From the IMG/VR virus record IMGVR_UViG_3300044858_003252, positions 1-38,981 of that record: a DNA stretch of 38,981 nucleotides; one strand, written 5' to 3'. Below are positions 10,638 to 29,759 of this stretch, piece after piece. The DNA is from a virus. The notes under the pieces were generated by a model that did no database searches, was not told the origin of the DNA, and worked only from the letters and a program-made list of their open reading frames with translations. A program made the translations under genes and the position numbers. Numbering within the stretch: position 1 is the stretch's first letter; each line of letters opens with the position of its first letter.

Positions 10638-12080
10638 ATGGCTAGGAGCATTGGCAAACTTGCGGCACAACTGGTCGCGACCGATGACGGCTTCGTCAAG
10701 GTTCTTGATCGCGTCGAGAAGGCTCTCGAATCGACGGAACGCAAGGCGCGGAAGACGGGCAAGGGCCTGAATGATGCGTTCTCGTTCGGTGCTGCTGCTG
10801 GTGCGACCATCGTTGCAATCGAGGGCCTTTCAAACCGCGTGCAGGCGGTGTTTGCCCGCATCTCCAAGTCTATCGAAGACCTGAACCGATCCGCCGAAAA
10901 CGCCTCTATGCTGGGGCTGGGCACGGTCGAGATTCAGGAAATCGAGGGGGCTTTCAAACTCGCGAACATCGAGGCCGAAACGACGCGGCGGCTTGTCGAT
11001 GACCTTGTTCGGACGGTTGCCGATGCTCGGATCGGCGACGATAGCGCAATCGCCCAACTCGCCCGCATCGGCCTGAGTGCTGAGGAACTTCGCGGGCTTG
11101 GAACGCGGGAACTTCTGAATCAGATTGCGGACGGGCTGGCGGGCATCGAGAACCCCGCAGAGCGTTCGGCGGCTGCGTTTGACCTGTTCGGCAAGCAAGG
11201 GCACAACGCTCTTCGCGTACTAAGCGAAGGGTCTAGCGGCCTCGCGTCTGCGATTGCGGAGGTTCGCGCGGTTGGTGGGGTGGTGTCCGATGTGGACGTA
11301 CAGCGGGCGGTGTTGGTCGATCAGGCGACGGATCGGCTATCGGTAGCGTTCGAAGGTCTTGCCAAACGCGCATCAGTCGTGCTTGCCCCGGCACTGGAAA
11401 AAGTGCTGAACCAGATGACCGATATCCTCTCGAAACTTGAGGGCGGCGACCTTATCAGGGTGATTGATAAACTGGGGGATGCGTGGAACTTCGCCAGAGG
11501 CGCGGGAAACGCGGTCGTCGGCGAGATTGGCACCGCTGTCGTAGCCGTGACTCAGGGCCTAGACGCCGCAAACCAATTCAACGCGGACATGAGGCAGGAG
11601 ACTCAACGCCTCATGAATGGAGAAACCGCAGGGGGCCAATCAGACTTCGACGCTCGCGCACAGGCCGCAGCAAAGGCCAGCGAGGACGCTCTAAACCGTG
11701 GACGACGCATTGCAAGGCTTCGATTCGCAGACGAAATGGAAGTCGTCAAGGTTGCCGAACAAGTTGTGGCGGTTGAAGAGGAGCGGGTAGACATCGCCCG
11801 CGAGTTGTACCGCATCAACCTTGAAAACCTAGAGGCCATGCGGGGCATTGATGTCGATTCGAGTCTGTCGGCATTGGCCGGAATAGAACCTACCCGGCGT
11901 GGTGGGCTGGCCGACTTGGTTCTAGGCGACAGTGCGGAGGCTCAACGGCTCGCGTTCAACGCTGGGAACTTGGGCGAAGACAAGGCACTACAGGCGCAAC
12001 AGAAGACGGCCAAGAACACGGAAGAGATCAAGAACAACACCCGGAACAGTGCAAACAAGTTCAACTTGTTCCTGCCCTAG
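10638..12080 (+). CDS. Tail tape measure protein
   Basis: Determines tail length and is threaded through the tube. The 480-residue protein is alpha-helical and Ala-rich, with a hydrophobic glycine-containing stretch near residues 50-70, an ENPAERSAAAFDLFGKQGHNAL segment typical of tape measure proteins near residue 175, and long charged helices at the C-terminus (VAVEEERVDIARELYRINLENLEAM). It is short for the family, which predicts a short non-contractile tail. AGGAG lies 7 bp upstream of the ATG. Confidence 0.88.
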   Translation: MARSIGKLAAQLVATDDGFVKVLDRVEKALESTERKARKTGKGLNDAFSFGAAAGATIVAIEGLSNRVQAVFARISKSIEDLNRSAENASMLGLGTVEIQEIEGAFKLANIEAETTRRLVDDLVRTVADARIGDDSAIAQLARIGLSAEELRGLGTRELLNQIADGLAGIENPAERSAAAFDLFGKQGHNALRVLSEGSSGLASAIAEVRAVGGVVSDVDVQRAVLVDQATDRLSVAFEGLAKRASVVLAPALEKVLNQMTDILSKLEGGDLIRVIDKLGDAWNFARGAGNAVVGEIGTAVVAVTQGLDAANQFNADMRQETQRLMNGETAGGQSDFDARAQAAAKASEDALNRGRRIARLRFADEMEVVKVAEQVVAVEEERVDIARELYRINLENLEAMRGIDVDSSLSALAGIEPTRRGGLADLVLGDSAEAQRLAFNAGNLGEDKALQAQQKTAKNTEEIKNNTRNSANKFNLFLP

Positions 12081-18110: not shown

Positions 18111-18426
18111 CAACCGAAAGGGCCTAGTGGATGATGGCGACCCTCGCGAGCCTTCCCTATCGGAAGTGATGCGCGAAGTGCATGGCATTCGTGGCGACAT
18201 GCAAGACGTTGCCGCAAAGGTTGATGAGGTACACAAGCACGTAGTTTCGGCGAGTGAGCCTGAAAAGGGCCTGCTTATCCGCGTTCGCGACCTTGAACAG
18301 AAGTGGGCAACCACCGCCAAGGTTCTCGTTTTCATCGGGTCCGGGTTCCTGTTGCTTCTGGTTCAGGAGGTCTATTCGTGGTTTCAAACGCCGCCCTCGC
18401 CACCATCCTCGCAATCTCGCCCGTAA
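18103..18426 (+). CDS. Small holin-like membrane protein
   Basis: A 107-residue protein with a helical N-terminal part (SEVMREVHGIRGDMQDVAAKVDEVHKHV), a LIRVRDLEQKW segment and one transmembrane helix near residues 75-95 (VLVFIGSGFLLLLVQEVYSWF). A coiled-coil region followed by a single C-terminal membrane helix resembles haemolysin XhlA-type and some holin accessory proteins. I chose the GTG at 18103 after GGGGGCAAGA; a TTG at 18079 is possible. It overlaps the lipoprotein gene. Confidence 0.65.
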   Translation: MSNNRKGLVDDGDPREPSLSEVMREVHGIRGDMQDVAAKVDEVHKHVVSASEPEKGLLIRVRDLEQKWATTAKVLVFIGSGFLLLLVQEVYSWFQTPPSPPSSQSRP

Positions 18427-20042
18427 CCGTCGCACAGGAATCGCTCTGCGATACTGATTTCGACAACAACGGGTACACCGATCCCGAATCCGACATGGCC
18501 GCATTCCTCGCGGCGTTCTCTGAGGGGCCTTGTCCCACGGGCAATTGTGATTCAATCGACTTCAACGGCGATGGCGTCATGTTCGACCCCGCAGACGTTG
18601 ATGCTTTCCGCCTCGCGGTGAACGGCGGGCAATGTCCGAACGGTTGGTATCCGGTTCCGAAGTATCCGCAGGCCATGTGGGTCTACGTCGATCCCGATGG
18701 CGTAGACACCGCGACGGGCACGAAGGGCCAGCCGGTTCGCACGTTCATTGAGGCGCACAAGCGTGCACTTGCAGCGGCGAACAGTGGGCGTCCGTGGGCG
18801 GTCATCATCGGACGCGGCGAGTTTGTTGACCAGAGCATCACGGGCGAATACGGCGCGTGGCAAGTCTCTGGCACGGCCAAGTACCCCGGTTTCATCGCAG
18901 CCGATCCCGACGACAATCCCGCCTTGCCGCGTCCGATCATCCGTCCTGCCAACGGTGGCGATGGTGCGTTGTTCTACGCGGGCAACATTCGCATCATCGG
19001 CCTGGACATCGAGAACCCCACCACCGACGCGGGGCGGCGTGGCAACGGCATCAAGTTCTACGGCAAGGGTTCAGAGGGTCGCGAGAACATCGTCATTGAT
19101 GACTGTGCGGTGACGGGCTTCGGTGGCGGCATCGTCATTCAAGGCGAGTCCGCAGCCGATCCCATCCGCCACGTCATCGTGAGCCGTTCGTCTGTCGTGG
19201 GTTCGTGGTCGGCTGACGGCCACTCACAAGGCGCGTTCGCGTCGGCTGTGTCTGGTATCCGCTGGCACCAAGTCACGCTCTACGCCAACGGTTTTAGCGA
19301 GGCCAACAACGCACCCGCAACCGTCTTCAATCACGGGTACTACGGCGTCCCCAATGTCCGCGACGGCATGTGGTACGACTCGATTGCCGTCGAGAACTCC
19401 GCTACCGGCTGGCAGTTGCGGGGCGGTTCGCAGAGTGTCATTGGGTCCGTTGCGATCAACAACCCACTAGGCATCACGGGCGGGCACGCACAGGCCGGGC
19501 CTAACGACGACTGGACCGGGGCCATCCGCGATTGCCTCATCATCGGCGGTGGCGACATTGGCGGGCAGCCTCGCTCGTTCTCGATTGGGCTGGACCGTGC
19601 GAAGGGCGCACAGGTCACGGGGAACATCGTTTGGCGTGTCGCGCCGGAAAGCGCGGGGGCCGATCAGGGCGCGGTGTTTTGGTTGCAGGGGCCTCCCGTG
19701 CAATCTTGGACCGTTGCCGGAAACACCATCTACGACCCTCGCCTCAGCATCGAATCACACCTCGCGACTAGTGCCGTTCGTGATGATCGGTCTGCTGTCA
19801 GTGTTCCGCCGCGTTCGTCGCTGGCAAACAACGGCTGGCACAACCAGAGCGAAGACCAGTGGGTTCCGCCCACCCTGACGGATTACCTGCAAGGCCACGG
19901 CGTTTACATCTTCGCGCCCGAGTTGGCCGGCCGGACGTTCGCACAACTTGCGGCGCGGAATCGGCGTGGTGCATGGGCTGACCAGTGGACCGCTAGCGCG
20001 CTGATTGCGTGGTGGCGTGGCAAGATGGGGGAGAACGAATAA
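18378..20042 (+). CDS. Secreted right-handed beta-helix protein with dockerin-like domain
   Basis: A 554-residue protein. It starts with a signal peptide (about residues 1-20, ending TVAQ) and a dockerin-like Ca-loop segment of about 60 residues with DTDFDNNGYTDPESD and DSIDFNGDGVMFDPADVDAF. A long domain follows with repeated short strands (IRIIGLDIENPTTD, IVIDDCAVTGF, HVIVSRSSVVGS) typical of pectate-lyase-like beta-helices. The likely role is a polysaccharide-degrading or binding spike. AGGAGG 7 bp before the GTG fixes the start. The export signal and host-style domain are odd for a virion protein and suggest capture from a Phycisphaerae host gene. Confidence 0.8.
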   Translation: MVSNAALATILAISPVTVAQESLCDTDFDNNGYTDPESDMAAFLAAFSEGPCPTGNCDSIDFNGDGVMFDPADVDAFRLAVNGGQCPNGWYPVPKYPQAMWVYVDPDGVDTATGTKGQPVRTFIEAHKRALAAANSGRPWAVIIGRGEFVDQSITGEYGAWQVSGTAKYPGFIAADPDDNPALPRPIIRPANGGDGALFYAGNIRIIGLDIENPTTDAGRRGNGIKFYGKGSEGRENIVIDDCAVTGFGGGIVIQGESAADPIRHVIVSRSSVVGSWSADGHSQGAFASAVSGIRWHQVTLYANGFSEANNAPATVFNHGYYGVPNVRDGMWYDSIAVENSATGWQLRGGSQSVIGSVAINNPLGITGGHAQAGPNDDWTGAIRDCLIIGGGDIGGQPRSFSIGLDRAKGAQVTGNIVWRVAPESAGADQGAVFWLQGPPVQSWTVAGNTIYDPRLSIESHLATSAVRDDRSAVSVPPRSSLANNGWHNQSEDQWVPPTLTDYLQGHGVYIFAPELAGRTFAQLAARNRRGAWADQWTASALIAWWRGKMGENE

Positions 20043-24362: not shown

Positions 24363-24614
24363 ATGCACAAGAAACGCACCGCGCACTGGCTCAACCACGA
24401 CTGGGGCACGGACGACGCGCTGAACAGGCTCGCCGACGAACTCACGCGCATCATGGGCAAGCCGGTCCCGAAGACGCTGGCCCTTCACGCTGCGGTCTGC
24501 ATCGCCGACCCGATCCGGGCCGCGCGGTTCCTCACGCACAACACGCCGGAGGGGGCGCATTACCGCGACCTGACAGGCAACAGGAAGGACGCGACCGATG
24601 CGAGTGCGAAGTAA
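24363..24614 (+). CDS. Hypothetical protein before integrase
   Basis: An 83-residue protein with a helix-rich centre (DALNRLADELTRIMGKPVPKTLALHAAVCIAD). It ends 17 bp inside the integrase gene, so the two are probably co-translated. Small genes in this position are often recombination directionality factors, but I see no clear DNA-binding motif. Confidence 0.6.
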   Translation: MHKKRTAHWLNHDWGTDDALNRLADELTRIMGKPVPKTLALHAAVCIADPIRAARFLTHNTPEGAHYRDLTGNRKDATDASAK

Positions 24615-25755
24615 CGGCGACTACTGGCAGTTGTCCTATCAGTTGCCCGACGGCACCCGCACTCGCGAGAGCCTTGGCCGCAAGTCCACCATCGGCGGGA
24701 AGAAGGACGCGGAGCGGCTGGCCATTCAACGCATCGCCGAGCGCGGCGTCATGGTCGGGAGGGTGGACCCGACGACGCTGCTGGCGTGGCGTGACGCCTA
24801 CCGGCTGGAACGCACAGACTTGAACCCAAAGACGCTGGCCGACCAGGTTGCCGCTATCGACCGGCTTATCTCCGTCATCGGCAACAAGCGGGTACGCGAC
24901 GTTGGGGCCGAACATGCGCGGGCGTTCGTCAACCACCTGCGGGATGCCAAGGGCCGCGACTCGGACAAGTTGTCGGCCAACACCATCGCCGGCATCGTGG
25001 CGCGGCTGGGGGTGGTCTTCGAGTACGCGGTCAATAGGTCCACACCCCTCGCCCAGCGAAACCCATTCGCCCGCAAGTCGCTACGGACGCACACGCTGAA
25101 CATCGCGGCGGGCGGGGCTGCTGGGTGGTCCTACGTGTCCCAAGAGCAGGCCGACGCCATCGCCGGGTACATCACCAACCCCACGGCGTTCCTCGCGTTC
25201 TGCATTGCTCGCCGGGCTGGTCTTCGCCGCGAGGAGATACGCAACCTCCGATGGGCCGACGTGCAATGGCACAACAACGTCATCCACATCCCCATCCGCG
25301 AGAGCAACGGGCGCACAGACCGAGGGACCAAGCAGCGGGACCGCTTCGCCCCAATGGACGCAACCCTCGCGGGGCTGCTGCTGACGGCGCAGAACGAGAG
25401 TTACGACGACGGGCCTTGCCGTGGCTTCCGCGAACACCACGCCCGCATCATCGACAAGGCCAGGATCGAGGCTGGCATTGCGGACTACGGCAAGCCATTG
25501 CACACGTTGCGTAAGTCGTTGGCGACAGACTGGATACGTGGCGGGGCCTCGTTCCAGTTGGTCGCGGAGGCGTTGGGCGACACCGAAGAAACCGTCAAGA
25601 AATACTACTACGAGCGGTTCCCGATGGATAGAATCGCCTCGCTAGTTACATCGTCCCCGAAGGCTATCGCGGCGTTAGGGGAAAAAACGGGTGAAAAATG
25701 CGCACAGGACGGCGCACAAAACCCGGAGCCAGTCGCGCAAGTGGCTGGAAAATAA
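24598..25755 (+). CDS. int: Tyrosine-family integrase
   Basis: Site-specific recombinase for integration and excision. The 385-residue protein has a core-binding domain at about residues 55-160 and a catalytic domain with RAGLRREEIRNL (Arg about 210), LHTLRK (His about 302, Arg about 305) and the KKYYYERF tyrosine motif (about 336-338). The His/Trp position reads LGDT rather than LGH. The last 25 codons overlap two GCGCACA arm-type repeats. The gene ends 6 bp before the tRNA-derived attP core, the usual int-attP arrangement. Confidence 0.93.
   Translation: MRVRSNGDYWQLSYQLPDGTRTRESLGRKSTIGGKKDAERLAIQRIAERGVMVGRVDPTTLLAWRDAYRLERTDLNPKTLADQVAAIDRLISVIGNKRVRDVGAEHARAFVNHLRDAKGRDSDKLSANTIAGIVARLGVVFEYAVNRSTPLAQRNPFARKSLRTHTLNIAAGGAAGWSYVSQEQADAIAGYITNPTAFLAFCIARRAGLRREEIRNLRWADVQWHNNVIHIPIRESNGRTDRGTKQRDRFAPMDATLAGLLLTAQNESYDDGPCRGFREHHARIIDKARIEAGIADYGKPLHTLRKSLATDWIRGGASFQLVAEALGDTEETVKKYYYERFPMDRIASLVTSSPKAIAALGEKTGEKCAQDGAQNPEPVAQVAGK
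25700..25718. repeat. Left arm-type sites GCGCACA (two copies)
   Basis: GCGCACA occurs at 25700-25706 and 25712-25718, 12 bp apart, inside the integrase 3' end. The same heptamer recurs twice on the other side of the core at 25905 and 25916. Paired short repeats flanking an attP core are the hallmark of integrase arm-binding sites. Confidence 0.55.
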
Positions 25756-25938: not shown

Positions 25939-25987
25939 ATGTAATGTTACATTGACGTGCGGCTTATCTGCGGCTTTGGTGCGGCTT
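25939..25987. repeat. Palindrome and three TGCGGCTT repeats at 11-bp period
   Basis: ATGTAA and TTACAT flank TG as a dyad at 25939-25952. It is followed by TGCGGCTT at 25958, 25969 and 25980, exactly 11 bp apart; the last copy overlaps the 3' end of the repressor gene. They may be protein-binding sites of the recombination complex or a transcription end structure for the leftward repressor gene. No gene lies between 25756 and 25986. Confidence 0.45.
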
Positions 25988-26643
25988 CACGGGTTCAGGC
26001 TCTTCAACTCCACCACCACCGCGATACGCGGTACCCGTTCGTACGTCGCTGGCACCACCACGGCCTGCTTCTCGGGGTTGTCCTTGCGGAGTTCAATCAT
26101 CCCGTCCCCGCGAGAAGTCCAGCGGCCAATGACGGGGCCGCCCATCCACGACCCGCCGCTCTTCGCGGGGGCTGGGGAAATCCATGCGACGACCAGCCGA
26201 CCATCGGTAAGCCGGTTCTCGTCGCCTTCCTTCAACATCTCACAGATGCAGATATCGCCCGGTCTGATTCGCGGGGCCATGCTGTCCCCTTGAACCTCCA
26301 CGGCGAACGCATCAACGGCCACGGTTGCGGTTGTTTCGACGAACCTGTCTGCGTCCTGCAAGGTCCACCCCACATCCTCCGCGCTGCGGATCAGGCGTCC
26401 AGCCTGTACCTCCGTCAGCAGCGGGACCATCCTCGCCTGCTTCTTGTTGGCCTTCGACAGAACCACATCCGCCGAAGACCCAAGCAATGCCGCCCATTCC
26501 TCCAGTTCTTGCGGCTTGATCTTGACTGTGCCAACTTCCTTCTGCTGAATGAGGCCATGCGACACGCGGAGCGATTTGCTCACCTCGCGTATCGACATTC
26601 CTGCGCGGTTGCGGAGTTCCCGCAGCACATCGCCAACATCCAT
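25987..26643 (-). CDS. S24/LexA-type lysogeny repressor
   Basis: Probable CI-like repressor, the only clear leftward regulator. The 218-residue protein has an N-terminal helix-turn-helix (about residues 5-58, VLRELRNRAGMSIREVSKSLRVSHGL) and an S24 domain with an AG cleavage site (about 81-82) and GDSMAP (Ser about 121). Where LexA-type enzymes have the catalytic Lys (VKRL), this protein reads VIGRW, so Gly173 replaces Lys; a Lys at about 161 lies in an insertion. I chose the ATG at 26643, 5 bp after a -10 box; the frame is open upstream to a GTG at 26706. Confidence 0.85.
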   Translation of the reverse strand: MDVGDVLRELRNRAGMSIREVSKSLRVSHGLIQQKEVGTVKIKPQELEEWAALLGSSADVVLSKANKKQARMVPLLTEVQAGRLIRSAEDVGWTLQDADRFVETTATVAVDAFAVEVQGDSMAPRIRPGDICICEMLKEGDENRLTDGRLVVAWISPAPAKSGGSWMGGPVIGRWTSRGDGMIELRKDNPEKQAVVVPATYERVPRIAVVVELKSLNP

Positions 26644-26648
26644 GCGTG

Positions 26649-26676
26649 ATGGAAGCACAGCCAACATTTTTGTCAA
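26649..26676 (-). promoter_or_regulatory. Possible leaderless promoter of the repressor
   Basis: On the minus strand TTGACA (26676-26671), a 16-bp spacer and TTCCAT (26654-26649) end 5 bp before the repressor ATG. This would start transcription at or near the start codon, as for the lambda maintenance promoter. The -10 box is weak (3 of 6). Confidence 0.4.
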
Positions 26677-26721
26677 CGCAAGTCCAAGAATGACAAGAGG
26701 ATGCACAGCCTCGGCTAGAAA

Positions 26722-28041: not shown

Positions 28042-28533
28042 ATGACGACGACAGTAGACCCAACCGTGACATTGATGCAACTTGCAAGGGAAACCGCGAA
28101 GGCGATTCCCGACACCGACAACGCGGCGCGCACGTTGCTGCGACGGGTGCGAGAGCAGGGGCTAGCCGATCCGCTGCTTGCACACATGACGTACACGGCG
28201 GCGAAGTCTGAAATCGAACGCATGAAGCACGCGGTGCGCAGTGGTTTCATTGCTAAGGCTTCGCGGCGTGGCGAGGAATCGACGGCGGCGTACACGGTGG
28301 CCATTGGCCTGCTTGACGGCTGGCACATCGGCGGGCTGCGGTTGAAGGACTGCAAGCGCGTTGACCTTGAAGAAGCAGCACGCGAGCAACGGGCGACGGC
28401 TCGCGGCAACATCGTGCGTGCGGCGTTCTACGAGGCGTTGGCCGCGAAGTTGAAGAAGGACCAATCGGTCGGCCAGGCGTTTGACGACGACGCGGCTAGC
28501 AAGTTGCTTGCCTCTGTGGAGGCCGCGACATGA
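28042..28533 (+). CDS. Hypothetical protein upstream of the TIGR-like array
   Basis: A 163-residue, mainly helical, basic protein (ARTLLRRVREQGLADPLLAHM, LEEAAREQRATARGNIVRAAFYEALAAKL). I recognise no domain. It ends exactly where the array region begins, its stop overlapping the next ATG (ATGA at 28530), so its transcript would carry the array. It could be an accessory of that system or an unrelated early gene. Confidence 0.7.
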   Translation: MTTTVDPTVTLMQLARETAKAIPDTDNAARTLLRRVREQGLADPLLAHMTYTAAKSEIERMKHAVRSGFIAKASRRGEESTAAYTVAIGLLDGWHIGGLRLKDCKRVDLEEAAREQRATARGNIVRAAFYEALAAKLKKDQSVGQAFDDDAASKLLASVEAAT

Positions 28534-29759
28534 GTACCACAATACAACGGCGAGAGCGGGCCATGCGAACATCGCAACCCACCAGCAGCACGCCCGCCTC
28601 GCCTTCCAAACCAAAGCGAGCGAGGGCCATCATTCCACAGAAACCCACTCGTTGCGTGCCCTCCTCGCTCGAATCAACGTGCGGCGCGACCATTGATCTG
28701 TTGAACGCCATTCCCCAAGTGTCGCCCGCACGCGAACAAACTGCCAGCAATGACCATTCGAGTCCTGTTGCCCTCCCTGTGAGTGTCATTGCTGGCACGA
28801 ATAACAATGCTGGTGTTGGCCATCTATGCCGTGAATGCCACTCCTCGTGTGCCAACACCAGCACAAACAATGTCCGGCAAGGCCATCTTTGTTCTGCAAC
28901 CCAACCCGAAGATGCCGAGCCGGACACAAACGAAGGGGCGAGCGGCCATCGTGCCACTGCACACCAATCGCCAAATGCCGCCGCCCCAGCGAATCACGAA
29001 GGACCGCAATGTTCTACTGAAACCCAATCAGCGTGCTCGGCCTTCGTCGAACCATACTCGCGCCTCCGCTTCGTTCTCCGCCAGTTGCTTGGTATCGAGA
29101 GTTCGCTAGGCGCGTTTGCTCGCCTCATGCTCGCTCGCGGTGGCAAGCCGGAGGACGTGAAAGAGCGGGCGGCGAAGTTGATTGCCGACATTCGCAAGGG
29201 TCGGGAATCAGACGAACCCACCCACATCGTTGCGATGGTTGCGGCGATGGATGCCGATTTCGAGCCTGCGCGCGAGGCGTTGGCTAGCCGACGCAAGGAC
29301 CTAGAGAAGCAGTTGCAGGCGTTGGCCAAGACGCTGCCGGTGTGGGCGTGGGTCGAGGGCGTGGACGGGCTGGGCGCGCTGTCACTGGCGAAGATCGTTG
29401 CCGAGTGCGGCGACCTGAACCAGTACGCGAACCCGGCAAAGTTGTGGAAGCGGATGGGGCTTGCGGTGATGGGTTCGCGTCGGCAAGGCAACCCGGAATC
29501 GAAGACCGCAGAGGAGTGGATTTCGCACGGCTATTCCCCCCGCAGGCGTGCGATTGTCTGGAACATCGGCGAGTGCATCGTCAAGAACGGCAAGGAATAC
29601 CGCACGCTCTTCGACGAACGCAAGAAGTTGGAACTTGCCAAACTCAACGTGCCGGAAGGGACGCCCAACGCGCACGCCAACAACCGGGCAAAGCGGTGGG
29701 TGACGAAGCGGTTGATGAAAGACCTTTGGGTCCAGTGGCGGAAGTGTGAATCGGTCTGA
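28530..29759 (+). CDS. Tas-like Nop-domain protein (TasA type), open frame including the array
   Basis: The frame encodes 409 residues. Residues 7-172 are translated from the hairpin array and look like low-complexity sequence. The rest is ordered: a helical region from about 185, a coiled coil (EPAREALASRRKDLEKQLQA, about 248-267) and a C-terminal domain from WVEGVDGLGALSLAKIVAE (about 273) to the end. That domain resembles the Nop/Transposase_20 fold of Nop56/58, IS110 and TIGR-associated proteins. No RuvC, DEDD or HNH nuclease motif is present. ATG 28530 has GGAGG and an ATGA overlap, but ATG 29127 or TTG 29085 would give a 210-225 residue protein without the array. Confidence 0.7.
   Translation: MSTTIQRRERAMRTSQPTSSTPASPSKPKRARAIIPQKPTRCVPSSLESTCGATIDLLNAIPQVSPAREQTASNDHSSPVALPVSVIAGTNNNAGVGHLCRECHSSCANTSTNNVRQGHLCSATQPEDAEPDTNEGASGHRATAHQSPNAAAPANHEGPQCSTETQSACSAFVEPYSRLRFVLRQLLGIESSLGAFARLMLARGGKPEDVKERAAKLIADIRKGRESDEPTHIVAMVAAMDADFEPAREALASRRKDLEKQLQALAKTLPVWAWVEGVDGLGALSLAKIVAECGDLNQYANPAKLWKRMGLAVMGSRRQGNPESKTAEEWISHGYSPRRRAIVWNIGECIVKNGKEYRTLFDERKKLELAKLNVPEGTPNAHANNRAKRWVTKRLMKDLWVQWRKCESV
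28537..29056 (+). repeat. TIGR-like tandem hairpin guide-RNA array (8 units)
   Basis: Eight units have arms at 28549-28561/28592-28603, 28617-28627/28658-28671, 28678-28690/28721-28732, 28742-28754/28785-28797, 28808-28820/28851-28863, 28871-28883/28914-28926, 28935-28946/28977-28987 and 28996-29006/29038-29047. Arms differ in sequence between units but remain complementary; units 4 and 5 have 13 perfect pairs. Loops are 30 nt (31 in unit 8), begin CAT (CAA in unit 8), then carry 9 variable bases, a GNAACCCA-like block (offset 13-20) and 9-11 variable bases. Linkers of 6-13 nt are A-rich (CAAACAA, CGAACAAAC). Variable 9-10-base blocks between short conserved blocks, next to a Nop-domain gene, fit a TIGR array. 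Confidence 0.8.

What the first reader, a model, noticed from the sequence alone, without database searches (positions are those of the whole stretch)
28537..29759. TIGR-Tas-like RNA-guided system in a planctomycete-type phage
Seen: eight tandem ~55-nt hairpins with a ~64-bp period; arms differ between units but remain complementary in all eight, a strong sign of selection on structure. Each loop is 30 nt (31 in unit 8), opens with CA(T), carries nine variable bases, a GNAACCCA-like block and nine or more variable bases; linkers are A-rich. Directly downstream is a coiled-coil plus Nop/Transposase_20-like domain without a nuclease. Known: TIGR-Tas systems in phages pair tandem dual-spacer guide arrays, processed to about 36-nt RNAs, with Nop-domain Tas proteins. 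Inference: this is a nuclease-less (TasA-like) system, perhaps acting by binding DNA of rival phages or of the host. Which variable blocks serve as spacers A and B I cannot decide.
Basis: partly seen in the sequence, partly recalled or inferred. Interest (0 to 1): 0.97.

Follow-up and report, generated by a model that had tools for sequence, protein, structure and literature searches.

The report
Guide-RNA array inside its effector gene
A phage carries eight hairpin guide RNAs of the recently discovered TIGR-Tas kind, and unusually they lie inside the gene for the DNA-binding protein they are expected to steer; about 80 related phage loci, including lab-grown mycobacteriophages, show that this is a widespread layout with a conserved, uncharacterised partner gene.

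Summary
Eight hairpins (28549-29047) have complementary but unit-specific arms and 30-nt loops (31 in U8). The loop reads as two 9-nt spacers between published TIGR boxes: stem-C|CA-N9-(T/C)G-bridge-CCA-N9-(T/C)G. The protein is a nuclease-less Tas protein: profile hits to TasR (E=2e-31) and TasH (2e-18), and an AlphaFold model (pLDDT 93) whose best solved matches are TasR, TasH, then IS110. Stem-loop arrays with TasA are already published (Faure 2025, Fig. 7), so the class is known. Not described in that paper's main text: (1) the array lies inside the tas reading frame, which starts behind a Shine-Dalgarno and overlaps the upstream stop (ATGA). Across 45 arrays the tas frame holds 26 stops against 66 and 128 in the other frames; the embedded state changed at least 9 times on the tree. 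(2) A gene of unknown function and fold (phrog_4604-like) precedes tas in most loci. (3) In cluster A mycobacteriophages stems stay 90-100% identical while spacers fall to 27-53%: spacers are swapped in place. No target passed controls. Expression, processing and DNA binding remain untested.

The parts
28042..28533 (+). Upstream partner gene (163 aa), all-helical model, phrog_4604-like, function and fold unknown; its stop overlaps the tas start (ATGA)
   Evidence: Iterative HMM search finds 75 homologous ORFs in the loci, nearly always directly upstream of tas; model pLDDT 87.7 with no PDB fold match better than E=9; no Pfam match for the window protein; weak phrog_4604 match, E=0.006
28530..29759 (+). 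tasA-like ORF, 409 aa: array-encoded S/T/P/A/N-rich N-terminal extension followed by coiled-coil plus Nop-like domain
   Evidence: ORF; SD GTGGAGG before ATG at 28530 and ATGA overlap
28549..28603 (+). Unit U1: spacer A TGCGAACAT, loop CGCAACCCA, spacer B CCAGCAGCA
28615..28669 (+). Unit U2: spacer A TCATTCCAC, loop AGAAACCCA, spacer B CTCGTTGCG
28678..28732 (+). Unit U3: spacer A TTGATCTGT, loop TGAACGCCA, spacer B TTCCCCAAG
28742..28797 (+). Unit U4: spacer A TTCGAGTCC, loop TGTTGCCCT, spacer B CCCTGTGAG (13-bp perfect stem)
28808..28863 (+). Unit U5: spacer A TCTATGCCG, loop TGAATGCCA, spacer B CTCCTCGTG (13-bp perfect stem)
28871..28926 (+). Unit U6: spacer A TCTTTGTTC, loop TGCAACCCA, spacer B ACCCGAAGA
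28935..28987 (+). Unit U7: spacer A TCGTGCCAC, loop TGCACACCA, spacer B ATCGCCAAA
28996..29047 (+). Unit U8 (31-nt loop, degenerate edge): spacer A ATGTTCTAC, loop TGAAACCCA, spacer B ATCAGCGTG
29040..29756 (+). Coiled-coil plus Nop-like (Tas) domain, 239 aa, no nuclease domain detected
   Evidence: PDB profile hits 9mty TasR E=2.2e-31 and 21kl TasH E=1.6e-18; AF2 pLDDT 93.3; Foldseek top hits TasR, TasH, then ISCro4/IS621; Pfam only a weak Transposase_20 match

Best explanation
This is a stem-loop TIGR system with a nuclease-less Tas protein (TasA). The transcript through the upstream gene and tas carries eight hairpin guide units. Each unit presents two 9-nt spacers, anchored by box C (CCA) and box D (T/C-G) to the two Nop domains of a TasA dimer, and steers the dimer to an 18-bp DNA site reading A + reverse complement of B, one spacer pairing with each strand. 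Binding, without cutting, would block or bend that DNA. The special feature is that the guides lie inside the tas coding sequence: the first about 170 codons of the 409-aa ORF are the array, read as a low-complexity tail. The same RNA is therefore both message and guide precursor, so cutting out guides should destroy the message and tie the amount of TasA to guide supply. Shown here: protein family and fold, unit anatomy, base-pair covariation, open frame, partner linkage, spacer turnover in relatives. Inferred: transcription, processing, DNA binding, feedback, and use against changing DNA such as that of rival phages.
For: Protein. Array anatomy and covariation. The loop and edge box D letters covary within units (odds ratio 19, p=3e-22), as published for TIGR repeats. 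A relative, Microcystis phage Mvi-JY20 (L010), carries a dual-repeat array with the same loop motif, ACGAAACCC. Embedding: 139 units in the open 5' part of tas ORFs, 8 inside the conserved-domain match; stops in the tas frame 26 against 66 and 128, arrays with no stop 32 against 17 and 5 of 45; 13 of 48 loci have an NTGA start exactly at the partner stop with the whole array open, and further loci start 4 nt before it behind SD-like sequences; permuting this window's units and linkers keeps the frame open in only 4%. At least 9 changes of the embedded state on the tree. Spacer turnover.
Against: No expression or small-RNA data. No target passed controls. 13 of 45 arrays next to tas have in-frame stops, so embedding is common but not obligatory. 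The open-frame test compares frames within arrays; part of the signal could come from base composition or relatedness of loci. The window's TasA sits on a long branch, so details may differ from characterised members. The target order A + rc(B) is my reading of the published cleavage geometry, not tested here.
Confidence: 0.78

Rival explanations
1. Same TIGR-TasA system, but the array region is not translated: TasA starts at an internal codon near 29083-29130 and the open frame is incidental.
For: Some relatives have TasA annotated to start after the array, e.g. Moose and M. abscessus prophage prophiFSAT01-1. An in-frame TTG and ATG exist near the domain start.
Against: SD plus ATGA coupling at 28530; stop avoidance in the tas frame; units inside the conserved-domain match of LonelyBoi, Spooky, L087 and L093 cannot be skipped.
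Confidence: 0.13
2. The system serves the phage's own life cycle (integrase or replication helper, or regulator of phage or host genes) rather than competition with other phages; TasA bends or blocks chosen sites.
For: Faure et al. propose this for TasA. In Gordonia phages tas lies between cro and excise. No matches to rival phages found.
Against: No matches in the phage's own genome above shuffled pairs, nor of prophage spacers in five isolate genomes and three MAGs; spacer turnover between close relatives argues against fixed own sites.
Confidence: 0.3
3. A degenerate IS110-type transposase with a bridge RNA.
For: Pfam Transposase_20 (E=0.005) and PHROG 'transposase' names; IS621 and ISCro4 among fold matches.
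Against: No DEDD domain found; the sequence profile finds TasR and TasH but not IS621; arrays of many units, not one two-loop bridge RNA.
Confidence: 0.03
4. The hairpins act as DNA or mRNA elements (operators, attenuators, stability elements), not as guides.
For: Strong stems in an early-region operon.
Against: Box-spacer-box anatomy with near-uniform spacer composition at 9+9 positions, strand bias 354:6, box covariation, linkage to a guide-binding protein family.
Confidence: 0.03

Closest known systems
Stem-loop TIGR array with TasA (Peromyscus leucopus gut contig; Faure et al. 2025, PMC12045711, Fig. 7)
   Same: Nuclease-less Tas; tandem hairpins with variable palindromic stems; two 8-12 nt spacers bounded by boxes C and D; linkers between units
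   Different: Published loci are described as arrays upstream or downstream of the gene; here the array is inside the tas reading frame; a phrog_4604-like partner gene precedes it; the loop repeat is nearly constant (NAACCCA)
Dual-repeat TIGR with TasR/TasH/TasA (PDB 9mty, 21kl, 9w04)
   Same: Nop/coiled-coil effector, CCA and UG-type boxes, 9-nt spacers
   Different: No edge repeats, no nuclease, hairpin edges instead
TasA-TasParB operons (Faure et al. fig. S14)
   Same: TasA with a second gene in an operon
   Different: Here the second gene shows no match to any PDB fold or convincing Pfam family and no sign of being ParB-like
IS110 recombinases with bridge RNA (IS621, ISCro4)
   Same: Related RNA-binding domain; split guide pairing with both strands
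   Different: No DEDD catalytic domain; array instead of one bridge RNA

Membership tests
TIGR-TasA, stem-loop array type | Nop-domain protein related to TasR/TasH | tested here: met
   PDB profile E=2.2e-31 (TasR), 1.6e-18 (TasH); Foldseek best hits TasR and TasH
TIGR-TasA, stem-loop array type | No HNH or RuvC nuclease domain | tested here: met
   Only a weak Transposase_20 match in the whole ORF; N-terminal part is array-encoded
TIGR-TasA, stem-loop array type | Tandem units with two 8-12 nt spacers bounded by box C and box D | tested here: met
   CCA-N9-(T/C)G-bridge-CCA-N9-(T/C)G in most units; deviations are U2 box D AG, U4 loop CCT and U8 edge
TIGR-TasA, stem-loop array type | Variable but palindromic stems at the edges | tested here: met
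   Covariation score 0.864 vs 0.210; folds
TIGR-TasA, stem-loop array type | Array expressed and processed to single hairpin RNAs bound by Tas | not testable with these tools
   Needs RNA sequencing of a pull-down
TIGR-TasA, stem-loop array type | Guide-directed DNA binding on both strands | not testable with these tools
   Needs binding assays; no natural target found
TIGR dual-repeat type | Conserved edge repeats in place of stems, 36-nt unit | tested here: not met
   Edges are variable palindromes with 61-66 nt spacing
IS110 transposase | DEDD nuclease domain | tested here: not met
   Not found in the ORF; the model has coiled coil plus Nop-like domain only
CRISPR array | Identical direct repeats of about 25-36 nt | tested here: not met
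   No direct repeat family in the array

The most novel reading that the evidence does not exclude
A self-limiting RNA-guided operon: the effector's own message is the guide precursor (guides overprinted on the coding sequence), accompanied by a conserved partner protein of unknown fold, with spacers exchanged in place, A and B independently, inside conserved stem-loop frames in cultivable mycobacteriophages. The partner might serve guide maturation or spacer exchange.
Probability: 0.45. Interest if true: 0.9.

Novelty: new variant of a known kind. Interest (0 to 1): 0.8.

Why it matters
The biological role, natural targets and array renewal of TIGR systems are listed as open by their discoverers. 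Here the stem-loop type is found in dozens of sequenced phages of one laboratory host, M. smegmatis mc2 155, with spacers that differ between near-identical phages while stems stay fixed. That makes expression, processing, targets and spacer turnover directly testable in a tractable host. Guides written inside the effector's coding sequence would be an unusual form of dual-use RNA and suggest built-in control of effector dose. The tightly linked partner gene gives a new component to test.

Tried and rejected
Target search with A + rc(B), gaps 0-2: own genome and all held phage sequence gave at most 17/18 matches, three in all against 0-1 in shuffled pairings, not convincing. Prophage spacers against eight host genomes: only 16-mers. 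Eight mycobacteriophage spacer pairs against 50,697 phage records: no hit in any mycobacteriophage; in effect only exact ungapped matches could be seen. Window U6 against IMG/VR: one exact 18-mer in an unrelated contig, taken as chance. A scan with the window protein alone found no relative; the alignment found 77. No plasmid relative, no Rfam match. Spacers A and B are neither alike nor complementary within units. The phage's host was not identified: the terminase search gave only distant hits. Two family searches had a wrong frame for one protein and were rerun.

Full report
What is in the window. The window is a virus record of 38,981 bases. Between a 163-aa gene (28042-28533) and a P-loop ATPase gene (AAA_24) lies one ORF of 409 aa, 28530-29759. 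Its first about 170 codons coincide with eight tandem hairpins; its last about 240 form a coiled coil plus a Nop-like domain.

Unit anatomy. Written against the published TIGR motifs (box C = CCA, box D = UG, 9-nt spacers; PMC12045711), each loop reads stem...C|CA, spacer A (9 nt), T/C-G, a short bridge, CCA, spacer B (9 nt), T/C|G...stem. U2 (box D AG), U4 (CCT) and U8 (31 nt, degenerate edge) deviate in one element each.

The protein. Pfam gives only a sub-threshold Transposase_20 match and PHROGs 'transposase'. A profile of five relatives finds TasR (9mty, E=2.2e-31) and TasH (21kl, E=1.6e-18) as the only credible solved chains. The AlphaFold model of the domain (pLDDT 93.3) matches TasR and TasH best, then ISCro4 and IS621, then weakly Nop58/Prp31-type proteins. 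No nuclease domain was found, so by the published naming it is a TasA.

Relatives. tblastn in phage records finds Rhizobium phage RHph_X2_25, five Gordonia phage records, Rhodococcus phage Peregrin, Microcystis phage Mvi-JY20 and 75-77 mycobacteriophage records, most of them near-identical (cluster A type) phages. IMG/VR gives 77 loci, genomes nine, mostly Alphaproteobacteria. A strict unit consensus finds 354 units on the tas strand, 6 on the other and 2 in shuffles; 59 of 86 loci have at least two. Taking units by loop motif alone (314 distinct), the flanking arms pair far above arm-swapped controls, and on 85 units the pair count is 94.6% against 60.2%, covariation 0.864 against 0.210. The T/C choice in box D agrees between loop and edge (p=3e-22).

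The array is inside the gene. In the window the ORF starts with ATG overlapping the upstream stop (ATGA) behind a Shine-Dalgarno. Across relatives 139 units lie in the open 5' part of the tas ORF and 8 within the conserved-domain match itself; the latter must be translated if the protein is made. Counting stops without selecting for openness, 45 arrays next to tas hold 26 in the tas frame and 66 and 128 in the other two; arrays without any stop number 32, 17 and 5. In 13 of 48 loci the long ORF starts exactly at the partner stop, and in others 4 nt earlier behind SD-like sequences. On a tree of 44 Tas domains the embedded state needs 14 changes, at least 9 forced by supported branches. So embedding is a recurrent layout, not an accident of this contig, though 13 of 45 arrays carry stops and stay, at least in part, non-coding. 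The paper describes arrays upstream and/or downstream of tas, and a search of its main text found no mention of embedding; its supplement was not available.

A partner gene. Iterated HMM searches from the window's upstream gene recover homologous ORFs in nearly all loci, almost always the gene before tas. In phage records the cluster A version occurs in 76 records, 75 of them mycobacteriophages, against 77 mycobacteriophages with tas. The mycobacteriophage and Gordonia members belong to phrog_4604, unknown function. The all-helical model of the window protein (pLDDT 87.7) matches no solved structure. Its role is unknown.

Spacer turnover. In 18 cluster A loci units at the same position share stems (mean identity 0.90-1.00) and boxes (0.81-1.00), but spacers are 0.27-0.53 identical. 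The same spacer A occurs with different spacers B (TATCTCCGG with ATGCTCACC, TGATCATCC or ACTGTCGAC), so halves seem to change independently. How is not known; recombination at the shared stems and boxes is the simplest reading (inference).

Targets. No convincing target was found in the phage itself, held phages, eight genomes, the phage collection for eight pairs, or IMG/VR for one pair. These searches were limited in mismatches and gaps.

Function (inference). A nuclease-less TasA would bind, and probably bend, an 18-bp site. Changing spacers in fixed frames suggest a moving target such as competing phages or mobile elements; a role in the phage's own regulation or integration remains open. 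With guides inside the message, cutting out guides ends the message, which would cap TasA by guide supply.

Judgement. Membership in the published stem-loop TIGR-TasA class is supported on every feature that can be tested by sequence. The new parts are the intragenic array, the partner gene and the evidence of in-place spacer exchange in cultivable phages.

Noticed in passing
L010:3060-3420 (Microcystis phage Mvi-JY20): A dual-repeat TIGR array (edge ATGCGAGCC, loop ACGAAACCC, 9-nt spacers) directly downstream of a Tas relative annotated as hypothetical protein.
   Followed up: partly
Mycobacteriophage gene annotated 'transposase' (e.g. Moose gp72, L005:2866-3573) and PHROG 4285: The name transposase appears wrong: these proteins are TasA relatives with stem-loop arrays and no DEDD domain seen.
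   Followed up: yes
L007 (LonelyBoi) unit at 1506-1560 against L008 (Spooky) 4363: 17 of 18 match of A + rc(B) with a 2-bp gap between two Gordonia terrae 3612 phages; about chance level given all tests, but the right kind of pair.
   Followed up: partly
window 10793-10810 (- strand): 17 of 18 match to U1 in the order rc(A)+B, opposite to the published target order; probably chance.
   Followed up: no
L059, L047, L043, L087, L090, L093: Loop motifs that repeat at 18-nt steps, as if some units carry more than two spacers.
   Followed up: no
window 18303-20042 (+): ORF with EF-hand/dockerin-like repeats (DFNGDGVMFDPADVDAF), a style I recall from Planctomycetes; the only hint of the host I saw.
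   Followed up: no
window 24598-25755 (+) and 25987-26706 (-): ORFs that look like a tyrosine integrase and an XRE/S24-type repressor, so the phage is probably temperate; family search not run.
   Followed up: no
L054 and L050 (Shinella prophage and relative): Nearly identical Tas proteins, one with an in-frame stop in the array region and one without: a recent gain or loss of the fully embedded state.
   Followed up: no
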